Below are positions 10,175 to 38,028 of a stretch of DNA of 38,028 nucleotides, in pieces (the first letter of the stretch is position 1; each line of letters starts with the position of its first letter). This stretch comes from Selenomonadaceae bacterium (GTDB taxonomy: Bacteria > Bacillota > Negativicutes > Selenomonadales > Selenomonadaceae), in NCBI GenBank assembly GCA_022773425.1, contig JALFBM010000034.1, forward strand, positions 1 to 38,028, read 5' to 3'. The notes beneath the pieces were generated by a model. It was not told the DNA's origin. It saw nothing but the letters and a program-made list of their open reading frames with translations, and searched no databases. Both the position numbers and the translations under genes were made by a program.

Positions 10175-11026
10175 TCAGTCGGTCAGGGCTTTGTACATCG
10201 ACCAGGCGTTGATGTATGGCATGACGTCGGTGTCGAATTTGATGCCGTTGGTCTTCGGCACGTAGAGGATGTCGCCGTTCTCGAGGGCGACGTTCTGGGT
10301 GAGGTCGTGGCGAACGGTGTAGGCTTTCATGTTGAGCGTGCGGTAGTACATGGTGCCGTCGATGACGCGCAGGATCTGGACACGTGTGCTGCGGCCTTTG
10401 CGGGCCCAGCCGCCGGCGGACGCGAGCGCGGCGTAGGCGTTCATGTTGTCGATGGTCATGTCCTGGATGCCGGGTTTCTTGACCTCGCCCATGACGTAGA
10501 CCTTGCGCGGGCCGTATTTCGTGATCATGAGGGTGAGGTCCGGGACGCGCAGGTACTGGTTCAGGGAGTTCAGGACGACCTGCTTGGCCTCGTCGAGGGT
10601 CAGGCCCTCCATCTTGACGCTGCCGACGTACGGGAGCTGCACGTAGCCGTCGAGGCCGACGGTGATCTTGTCGATACCGATGCCGTCGGGGAAGCCGACG
10701 ACGAGCAGGCTCATGGTGTCGCCGCGGAACAGGCGGTAGTCCGGCGACACATACGTGTTGCGGAGCGAGGCCGTCTGGAAGATGTCCTTGGACTCGACGT
10801 AGCGGGCCTGGAGGTCGCTGCTCTGCGGCTTCGGCGGCTGCGCCTTTGCGGCTTTGGTGGCTGGCTTTGCGGATGCGCTGCCCTTTGCCGGCGTGCGGTA
10901 GGCGGCGGAGGCACCCGGATCGGCGGCTGCCTCGGCTGCGACCTGGTCGGCCGTCGGCGCGGCCAGAACGGTACCGCCCGCGGCCAGCATAGCCGCGAGT
11001 GTGAGAACCGATATGCTTGTTTTCAT
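10175..11026 (-). CDS. Outer-membrane polysaccharide export protein (Wza/Poly_export family)
   Basis: A 283-residue exported protein with a signal peptide ending around VLAA (residue 23), a low-complexity Ala/Lys/Pro linker (about 25-70), then the polysaccharide export domain (YRLFRGDTMSLLVVG... DGYVQLPYVGSVKMEGLTLDEA) and an SLBB-like segment (VYVMGEVKKPGIQDM... AYAALASAGGW). There is no lipobox cysteine, unlike enterobacterial Wza. It should form part of the outer-membrane exit channel, which supports a diderm host. The ATG at 11026 with AAGGGG upstream is preferred over a TTG one codon earlier. First gene of the operon, about 60 bases downstream of the predicted transcription start. Confidence 0.88.
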   Translation of the reverse strand: MKTSISVLTLAAMLAAGGTVLAAPTADQVAAEAAADPGASAAYRTPAKGSASAKPATKAAKAQPPKPQSSDLQARYVESKDIFQTASLRNTYVSPDYRLFRGDTMSLLVVGFPDGIGIDKITVGLDGYVQLPYVGSVKMEGLTLDEAKQVVLNSLNQYLRVPDLTLMITKYGPRKVYVMGEVKKPGIQDMTIDNMNAYAALASAGGWARKGRSTRVQILRVIDGTMYYRTLNMKAYTVRHDLTQNVALENGDILYVPKTNGIKFDTDVMPYINAWSMYKALTD

Positions 11027-11092
11027 CAATAAAACCCCTTGTTTTTCATCTTACTTAAAAATTTCGAGACTCCGCATAAAATAGCATACCTC

Positions 11093-11121
11093 ATTATATA
11101 TCATTCTTTTTCGCGCGACAA
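11093..11121 (-). promoter_or_regulatory. SigmaA-type promoter of the polysaccharide operon
   Basis: On the minus strand TTGTCG (11116-11121) and TATAAT (11093-11098) are separated by exactly 17 bases. Transcription would begin near 11086, giving a leader of about 60 bases before the export gene. No other promoter of this quality is seen further into the operon. Confidence 0.75.
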
Positions 11122-11175: not shown

Positions 11176-11204
11176 TTGTCCTTCCGGCGGGGTTCTTCTA
11201 TAAT
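11176..11204 (+). promoter_or_regulatory. SigmaA-type promoter for the repeat protein gene
   Basis: TTGTCC at 11176-11181, a 17-base spacer and a perfect TATAAT at 11199-11204 on the plus strand. It fires divergently from the polysaccharide promoter about 55 bases away. The transcript would start near 11211, immediately before an inverted repeat. Confidence 0.75.
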
Positions 11205-11214
11205 AGAAGTAGAG

Positions 11215-11240
11215 CGCAGTTCGTCTGCGGGCGGACTGCG
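11215..11240 (+). other. Hairpin at the 5' end of the repeat-protein mRNA
   Basis: CGCAGT (11215-11220) pairs with ACTGCG (11235-11240), with further C-G pairs inside. Lying at the predicted transcription start, it may stabilise the message or bind a regulator. It is about 30 bases upstream of the ribosome-binding site and does not cover it. Confidence 0.4.
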
Positions 11241-11281
11241 GATACCCACCGGAAGGATCTAGTGGAAAGCGAGGGATTGCT

Positions 11282-11710
11282 ATGGGTATTTCAGGAGTTG
11301 GCGGCTCTGGGGCGTATGCGTCCTATACCACGCTGAAATCGTTCCAGCAGCTGAATCGCGACGTGGATACGACGGGCGTCCAAAAGGCGTCGGCCATCTC
11401 GCGCCGGGCCGGGGACTACTCGCGCGTCTCGAATTTCGGCACGGAGACGAAGATCGGGACGAGCAAGTTCCAGCGCGGCAACGAGGAGACCGCGTCGATC
11501 GGGTCGCAGAAAACATCGGAGCTCATGGACAAGGCGAAGAGCTACTACGCCGCGTCGAATTTCGGCGACTCGACGAAGCTCGGCTCGAGCCGGTTCCAAC
11601 AGACGAACGCGCAGGTCAGCGCCAAGTTCGCGGCCGTCGCGAGCGCGTACAAGCAGTCGGCCAGCCTCGGCACGGCGACGCGCGGCGCGCTGGTGGATCT
11701 CGGGGCCTAA
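11282..11710 (+). CDS. Orphan two-repeat protein, function unknown
   Basis: A 142-residue protein with no signal peptide, membrane span or cysteine. It contains two copies of a motif reading SNFG..TK(I/L)G(T/S)S(K/R)FQ..N, beginning at residues 50 and 92, exactly 42 residues apart, inside a Ser/Ala/Gly/Thr-rich, probably partly disordered chain. The N-terminus (MGISGVGGSGAYASY) is Gly/Ser-rich. GAGGG lies 6 bases before the ATG. The gene has its own promoter and terminator, so it is a real single-gene transcription unit. I do not recognise the family; a lineage-restricted structural or surface-associated protein is only a guess. Confidence 0.75.
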   Translation: MGISGVGGSGAYASYTTLKSFQQLNRDVDTTGVQKASAISRRAGDYSRVSNFGTETKIGTSKFQRGNEETASIGSQKTSELMDKAKSYYAASNFGDSTKLGSSRFQQTNAQVSAKFAAVASAYKQSASLGTATRGALVDLGA

Positions 11711-11720
11711 ATCGTACCAC

Positions 11721-11760
11721 AAAAGGGAGGATGCCAAACACGGCACCCTCCCCTTTTTTT
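11721..11760. terminator. Bidirectional Rho-independent terminator
   Basis: A long stem forms between 11721-11735 and 11742-11757 (AAAAGGGAGG...GCC against GGC...CCTCCCCTTTT, one mismatch and one bulge) with a 6-base loop. A T-run of seven follows on the plus strand and a run of four on the minus strand. It ends both the repeat-protein gene and the convergent addA gene. Confidence 0.85.
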
Positions 11761-37457: not shown

Positions 37458-38028
37458 TCAAATCTGGAACTTCGCCGTGGACGATGACAATTCCTGTGCG
37501 AGATCGGACAGTTTCCGGCTGGCGCCGGCCACTTCATCCATAGAGGCCGACTGCTCTTCTGTCGCCGCCGATACCGATTCGGTTTCCGCGGCGACATCGC
37601 GTCCGGATTTGTCAATGCCTTCCATGACCTTTACGAGCGATTCGGCCCGTCCTGTGGATTCGCGGGCTTCCTGCAGGATCGTATCGGCTTGTGCCGTCAG
37701 ATCGGTCACGGCTTCGGAGATATGTTCAAAGGCTTCACCAGCCTCGGCCACGACTTCCCGTCCGCTCTGTACGTCCTCAGTTCCTTTTCTCATGCGCTCG
37801 ACGGCCTGCTCCGTATCCTGACGGATGGTGTGGATGAGCTCTGCGATCTTCTGCGCCGCCGTGTCGGATTCCTCGGCGAGCTTCCGTACTTCTTCCGCGA
37901 CGACGGAGAAGCCGCGCCCGGCTTCACCGGCACGGGCCGCTTCAATAGCTGCGTTGAGAGAGAGCAGATTCGTCTGCTCGGCAATCCCCGAGATCGTGAC
38001 GGAAATCTGTCCAATCTCCGTCGAGCGG
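37458..38028 (-). CDS. Methyl-accepting chemotaxis protein, C-terminal part (gene runs off the window)
   Basis: An open frame from the window edge to the stop at 37458 encodes about 189 residues of the cytoplasmic signalling domain. The hairpin tip that contacts CheA and CheW is seen as [20 protein letters not shown] followed by [21 protein letters not shown]. The rest is heptad-rich coiled coil with a methylation-type stretch [12 protein letters not shown] near the end. It ends in SSTAKFQI, without a CheR-docking pentapeptide. The sensor and membrane parts are outside. The sugar-binding lipoprotein gene follows 12 bases later, so the pair is likely co-transcribed. Confidence 0.93.

What the first reader, a model, noticed from the sequence alone, without database searches (positions are those of the whole stretch)
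11176..11760. Orphan protein with two 42-residue repeats, own promoter, leader hairpin and terminator
The unit has a consensus-quality promoter (TTGTCC-17-TATAAT), a 5' hairpin, a good ribosome-binding site and a strong terminator, suggesting high expression. The product, with repeated SNFG..TK(I/L)G(T/S)S(K/R)FQ..N motifs, resembles no family I know. It diverges from the polysaccharide operon, so the two may share regulation.
Basis: seen in the sequence. Interest (0 to 1): 0.6.

Follow-up and report, generated by a model that had tools for sequence, protein, structure and literature searches.

The report
Repeat protein regulated like flagellin
This small gene belongs to an undescribed family of repeat proteins found only in Selenomonas-type bacteria, and its messenger RNA carries the same CsrA-type "GGA-loop" switch that these bacteria put in front of flagellin, so it is probably made under flagellar control and may be exported through the flagellum.

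Summary
In detail: a 142-aa ORF (11282-11710, +) with two 42-residue repeats, a sigma-A-type promoter, a strong leader hairpin and a terminator. It is not an orphan. Profile searches find it in 103 of 189 Selenomonadaceae genomes (19 of 30 genera) and in none of 191 other genomes of the class. Members carry 1-5 or more units of 42 or 36 residues. No significant Pfam, NCBIfam or PDB match was found. Synteny with the polysaccharide operon is not conserved.

New here: the leader looks like a CsrA/FliW target. In the window it folds into tandem hairpins with AAGGAU and AGGGAU loops, 19 nt apart, the second on the Shine-Dalgarno. Across homologues 23/41 leaders have a GGA hairpin loop, against 13/147 control upstream regions and 26/26 flagellin leaders. 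The genome has fliW-csrA-flaG-fliD and flagellin. The family has no cysteine in 7052 residues (102 expected). It is absent from the six genomes without flagellin, and follows a flagellin gene in five loci of one genus.

Best reading: a CsrA-controlled, flagellum-linked repeat protein, perhaps exported by the flagellar secretion system. CsrA control is well supported by sequence; the flagellar role is inferred. The divergent clade beside flagellin mostly lacks the hairpin leader.

The parts
11176..11204 (+). sigma-A-type promoter TTGTCC-17-TATAAT
   Evidence: a TTGnnn-17-TATAAT-type promoter stands at similar distance in nearly all homologues; the same hexamers in S. bovis
11215..11240 (+). stable 5' leader hairpin (CGCAGUUCGUC/GGCGGACUGCG), loop UGCG
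11246..11265 (+). leader hairpin SL1, apical loop AAGGAU (CCAC c GGA[AGGA]UCU a GUGG): putative first CsrA site
11268..11281 (+). leader hairpin SL2, AGCGA[GGGA]UUGCU, loop AGGGAU over the Shine-Dalgarno: putative second CsrA site
   Evidence: AAGCGAGGGAU conserved in S. bovis and relatives
11271..11276 (+). Shine-Dalgarno GAGGGA
   Evidence: conserved in homologues
11282..11710 (+). CDS, 142 aa, Selenomonadaceae-specific repeat protein, no Cys
11416..11472 (+). repeat copy 1 (YSRVSNFGTETKIGTSKFQ)
11542..11598 (+). repeat copy 2 (YYAASNFGDSTKLGSSRFQ), 126 nt after copy 1
11721..11757 (+). terminator hairpin with U-tract, shared with the convergent addA-like gene ending at 11759
   Evidence: sequence

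Best explanation
The unit is a one-gene transcription unit for a small, cysteine-free, helical repeat protein whose translation is controlled by the CsrA-FliW system together with flagellin. Step 1 (supported by sequence): a vegetative sigma-A-type promoter makes a short mRNA with a stabilising 5' hairpin and an intrinsic terminator. Step 2 (strongly suggested): two adjacent hairpins present AAGGAU and AGGGAU loops 19 nt apart, the second on the Shine-Dalgarno; one CsrA dimer would bridge them and block ribosomes, as on C. jejuni flaA and B. subtilis hag. Step 3 (inferred): when flagellin leaves the cell, FliW is free, binds CsrA and releases this mRNA together with flagellin mRNA. Step 4 (inferred, weaker): the protein, without signal peptide or cysteine and made of helix-plus-loop units, works on or through the flagellum, most likely exported by the flagellar type III apparatus as a filament-associated or secreted protein. 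My estimates: real family 0.98; CsrA-type leader 0.8; flagellum-linked function 0.45. The stated confidence is for steps 1-3 plus a flagellar link of some kind.
For: Family. Leader: ARGGAU outside the Shine-Dalgarno 26 seen against 3.3 in shuffles; 1.27 per 100 nt against 0.10 in control upstream regions. GGA-loop hairpins with stem >=5 in 16/41 leaders against 3.0 in shuffles and 10/140 controls. GGA in MFE hairpin loops in 23/41 against 9.4 in shuffles (maximum 16) and 13/147 controls; flagellin leaders 26/26; the window has two such loops (12 of 1000 shuffles of that 41-nt part do as well). Stems differ while the loop stays, e.g. CCGGCAAA(AAGGA)UUUGCCGG, UCCCUA(AGGA)UAGGGA, UAAUUAAAA(AGGA)UUUUAAUUA. 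The genome has fliW (C72:56836) directly before csrA (C72:57229), then flaG and fliD, and has flagellins. Zero Cys in 7052 family residues, 102 expected; flagellin 0.10%, other proteins 1.45%. The six genomes without flagellin all lack the family. Family gene directly downstream of flagellin in L107, L108, L109, L113, L116. Literature: GGA loops plus Shine-Dalgarno overlap define CsrA sites (PMC7652899); the C. jejuni flaA leader has two ANGGA stem-loops 21 nt apart, the second on the ribosome-binding site (PMC4894983).
Against: The divergent clade whose genes lie beside flagellin (genus g11) has short leaders, mostly without the hairpins (5/14), so the two lines of flagellar evidence come from different subfamilies. 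The five flagellin-adjacent loci are probably one inherited arrangement. Only 5 of 55 loci have a flagellin or MCP gene as flanking gene by the local search. Many flagellated genomes, including two of the same genus, lack the family, so it is not needed for flagella. Only six flagellin-less genomes, in three genera, were available. The 41 leaders are related, so the P values overstate independence, and transcription starts are inferred. Folding with the start codon included gives a competing structure. Cys depletion also fits other disordered or surface proteins. AlphaFold2 gives only low-confidence helices (pLDDT 47 and 36).
Confidence: 0.5

Rival explanations
1. CsrA-regulated but not flagellar: an abundant cytoplasmic helical repeat or scaffold protein (storage, stress or cell-surface related) in a wider Selenomonadaceae CsrA regulon.
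For: Stand-alone gene with no fixed neighbour; many flagellated genomes lack it; hydrophilic, probably partly disordered helices. CsrA has many non-flagellar targets (PMC7652899).
Against: Complete absence of Cys, similar to flagellin; absent from flagellin-less genomes; the leader type closely resembles that of flagellin.
Confidence: 0.3
2. The mRNA leader is itself the main product: an abundant CsrA titrator (sponge), as reported for the C. jejuni flaA leader, with the short protein secondary.
For: Strong promoter, stabilising 5' hairpin, tandem ARGGAU loops and terminator. The flaA mRNA titrates CsrA in C. jejuni (PMC4894983).
Against: The protein sequence and its repeats are conserved across 19 genera while the leaders differ in sequence; divergent members keep the protein and lose the hairpins.
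Confidence: 0.1
3. The GGA hairpins are not CsrA sites; the leader matters for mRNA stability or translation efficiency only.
For: Purine-rich Shine-Dalgarno regions contain GGA by themselves (visible); transcription starts are inferred from promoter matches.
Against: Enrichment outside the last 18 nt, against dinucleotide shuffles and control upstream regions, and the same architecture in 26/26 flagellin leaders.
Confidence: 0.1

Closest known systems
CsrA/FliW-controlled flagellin leaders (B. subtilis hag, C. jejuni flaA)
   Same: Hairpin loop with ANGGA followed by a second GGA hairpin on the Shine-Dalgarno at about 18-21 nt spacing; fliW next to csrA in the genome.
   Different: The gene is not a flagellin; it has a vegetative-type promoter and an extra 5' hairpin; CsrA binding has not been measured.
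Flagellum-secreted non-structural proteins of C. jejuni (Fed, Cia, FlaC)
   Same: Proteins linked to the flagellar system and not required for motility; the window protein likewise has no recognisable Sec signal and is not required by every flagellated strain.
   Different: Sequence similarity was not tested; the 42-aa repeat architecture has no counterpart known to me; secretion is untested here.
Flagellins of the same genomes
   Same: Leader architecture, Cys/Trp/Pro-poor and Asn/Gln/Ser/Thr-rich composition, helical prediction.
   Different: No Flagellin_N or Flagellin_C domain; about 100-290 aa; variable number of repeats.

Membership tests
CsrA-repressed mRNA leader | GGA (ANGGA) in the loop of a leader hairpin | tested here: met
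   window loops AAGGAU and AGGGAU
CsrA-repressed mRNA leader | second GGA site overlapping the Shine-Dalgarno, spaced for a CsrA dimer (about 18 nt) | tested here: met
   GGA at 11255 and 11274, 19 nt apart, the second in GAGGGA
CsrA-repressed mRNA leader | csrA (and fliW) in the same genome | tested here: met
CsrA-repressed mRNA leader | motif kept across homologues | tested here: inconclusive
   23/41 leaders of the main set, but 5/14 in divergent members, several of these over the Shine-Dalgarno
CsrA-repressed mRNA leader | CsrA binding and csrA-dependent expression | not testable with these tools
   needs gel shift and reporter assays
Flagellin | Flagellin_N / Flagellin_C domains | tested here: not met
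   no Pfam match in the window protein and none to flagellin in homologues
Flagellar type III export substrate | no Sec signal, disordered N-terminus, Cys-poor composition | tested here: met
   sequence, AlphaFold2 low-confidence N-terminus, composition; compatible, not diagnostic
Flagellar type III export substrate | genetic linkage to flagellar genes | tested here: inconclusive
   beside flagellin in five loci of one genus; otherwise unlinked
Flagellar type III export substrate | flagellum-dependent secretion | not testable with these tools
   needs culture supernatants of export mutants

The most novel reading that the evidence does not exclude
A Selenomonadaceae-specific class of repeat proteins, exported through the flagellum or built onto it, whose repeat number varies between species and whose mRNA is both a CsrA target and a CsrA titrator, tying an unknown surface component to flagellin homeostasis.
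Probability: 0.2. Interest if true: 0.75.

Novelty: new variant of a known kind. Interest (0 to 1): 0.55.

Why it matters
It gives a first testable handle on an unannotated protein family found in about half of the Selenomonadaceae genomes searched (common rumen and gut bacteria). It also gives sequence evidence that the CsrA-FliW circuit works in Negativicutes and controls something besides flagellin. If the protein is exported, it would be a new kind of flagellar accessory protein.

Tried and rejected
Pfam, NCBIfam, PHROGs and PDB sequence searches gave no usable relative. AlphaFold2 on a 2-repeat and a 5-repeat member gave low-confidence helices, so no fold search was run. Conserved operon partners: none; the few recurring neighbours (hybrid cluster protein, MCP) follow lineage only. 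Shared regulation with the polysaccharide operon: rejected for lack of synteny. A known riboswitch or RNA family in the leader: none in Rfam. A prophage origin: nothing points to it. Relatives outside the family Selenomonadaceae: none among the other genomes of the class.

Full report
WHAT IS THERE. The window holds an intact 142-codon ORF at 11282-11710 on the + strand. It lies between a divergent gene at 10175-11029 (polysaccharide-export-like by its sequence, not searched) and a convergent addA-like helicase gene ending at 11759. Its two 42-residue repeats are real: 57 nt at 72% identity, 126 nt apart, and 12 identities in the best 24-residue window, reached by 0 of 5000 shuffles. Promoter TTGTCC-17-TATAAT, a 5' hairpin at 11215-11240, and a terminator hairpin with U-tract at 11721-11757 are confirmed.

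A FAMILY, NOT AN ORPHAN. A scan of GTDB species genomes gave 17 relatives, in Selenomonas bovis, S. ruminantium and uncultured relatives. Profiles built from them (A1; A3) find the family in 100 and 103 of 189 Selenomonadaceae genomes, 19 of 30 genera, often in two or more copies. None was found in the other 191 genomes of the class. Members hold one to five or more units. The usual period is 42 residues (59 of the spacings measured) and the second is 36 (18), the short unit lacking the VSNFGxET part. Consensus: xVSNFG(N/T)ETK(L/I)G(S/T)SxFQxxNxxIxxxGxxxTSxxMxxAKSY. Most members end in VDI(S/G)A or similar. A single-unit paralogue of 103-105 aa exists in several genera. No Pfam, NCBIfam or PDB family matches.

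NEIGHBOURHOOD. In 40 loci no neighbour recurs beyond close relatives, so the gene is a stand-alone unit and the polysaccharide operon is not a conserved partner. One exception: in five loci of one genus (L107, L108, L109, L113, L116) the family gene stands directly downstream of a flagellin gene, on the same strand, with its own promoter. These are probably one inherited arrangement, so they count as a single observation.

THE LEADER. Nearly every homologue has a TTGnnn-17-TATAAT-type promoter 30-110 nt before its start codon. Between them lie repeated ARGGAU motifs. Outside the last 18 nt there are 26, against 3.3 in dinucleotide shuffles, a density of 1.27 per 100 nt against 0.10 in control upstream regions of the same loci. 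Many sit in the loop of a hairpin whose stem differs between species while the loop stays: CCGGCAAA(AAGGA)UUUGCCGG, CUUUGAAA(AAGGAA)UUUCAAAG, UCCCUA(AGGA)UAGGGA, UAAUUAAAA(AGGA)UUUUAAUUA. By minimum-energy folding 23 of 41 leaders have such a loop, against 9.4 in shuffles (maximum 16) and 13 of 147 controls. In the window there are two, AAGGAU (11246-11265) and AGGGAU (11268-11281), with the GGAs 19 nt apart and the second in the Shine-Dalgarno; 12 of 1000 shuffles of that 41-nt part also give two. This is the textbook CsrA site: GGA in a hairpin loop plus a site on the Shine-Dalgarno, SELEX consensus RUACARGGAUGU (PMC7652899). It is close to the C. jejuni flaA leader, which has two ANGGA stem-loops 21 nt apart with the second over the ribosome-binding site (PMC4894983).

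POSITIVE CONTROL. Flagellin leaders of the same bacteria, where CsrA control is expected from B. subtilis and C. jejuni, show the motif in 26 of 26 cases. The window's own genome encodes fliW directly followed by csrA, then flaG and fliD, and has flagellins. CsrA was not tested on this RNA; the assignment rests on sequence and predicted structure.

LINK TO FLAGELLA. Four observations point the same way, none decisive: the flagellin-like leader; no Cys in 7052 family residues where 102 were expected, with a composition like that of flagellin; absence from all six genomes without flagellin, a small and phylogenetically clumped sample; and the flagellin-adjacent loci. Against this, many flagellated genomes lack the family, including two of the same genus. 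The flagellin-adjacent clade also mostly lacks the hairpin leader (5 of 14, several of these over the Shine-Dalgarno). Precedent for proteins exported by the flagellum without being needed for motility exists in C. jejuni (Fed, Cia, FlaC; PMC12445086).

THE PROTEIN. AlphaFold2 predicts a helix of about 25-30 residues per unit joined by loops, at low confidence (pLDDT 47 for the window protein, 36 for a five-unit relative). Only the first helix has a notable hydrophobic moment. A flexible chain of short helices joined by conserved SNFG..TK.G.S.FQ loops is the likely picture. The conserved loop, present one to several times, is the obvious candidate for a repeated binding motif (inference).

VERDICT. 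What makes it interesting is the leader: the gene most likely belongs to the CsrA-FliW regulon of Selenomonadaceae beside flagellin. The function of the protein remains an inference.

Noticed in passing
11241-11247 and 11283-11289: AUACCCA in the leader can pair with UGGGUAU at the start codon, an alternative structure that would hide the start (favoured when the start region is included). The S. bovis leader also has AUACCCA and S. ruminantium leaders AUACCUAU, both able to pair with their AUGGGUAU start regions; not seen in other clades.
   Followed up: partly
L087-L122 flagellin loci: All 26 flagellin leaders examined in Selenomonadaceae have a GGA hairpin loop before or at the Shine-Dalgarno, and many carry a GCTAGCAGCC-like element further upstream whose role is unknown.
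   Followed up: partly
L109 10084-10145 (-): RAGATH-18 RNA (Rfam RF03064) about 1 kb upstream of the flagellin gene next to the family gene.
   Followed up: no
L042, L068, L069, L070: Hybrid cluster protein (prismane) gene downstream of the family gene on the same strand in Selenomonas ruminantium-type genomes and one genome of another genus.
   Followed up: no
11093-11121 (-): A divergent promoter-like site TTGTCG-17-TATAAT for the polysaccharide operon in the same intergenic region.
   Followed up: no
37458-37793 (-): ORF with a partial, below-cutoff MCP signalling-domain match; larger MCP-like genes lie upstream of the family gene in some S. ruminantium loci.
   Followed up: no
L053, L061, L063, L065, L073, L120, L121: A single-unit paralogue (103-105 aa, MLIG..GLNTIANQ) with very short leaders and mostly no GGA hairpin, present beside the long form in several genera.
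   Followed up: partly
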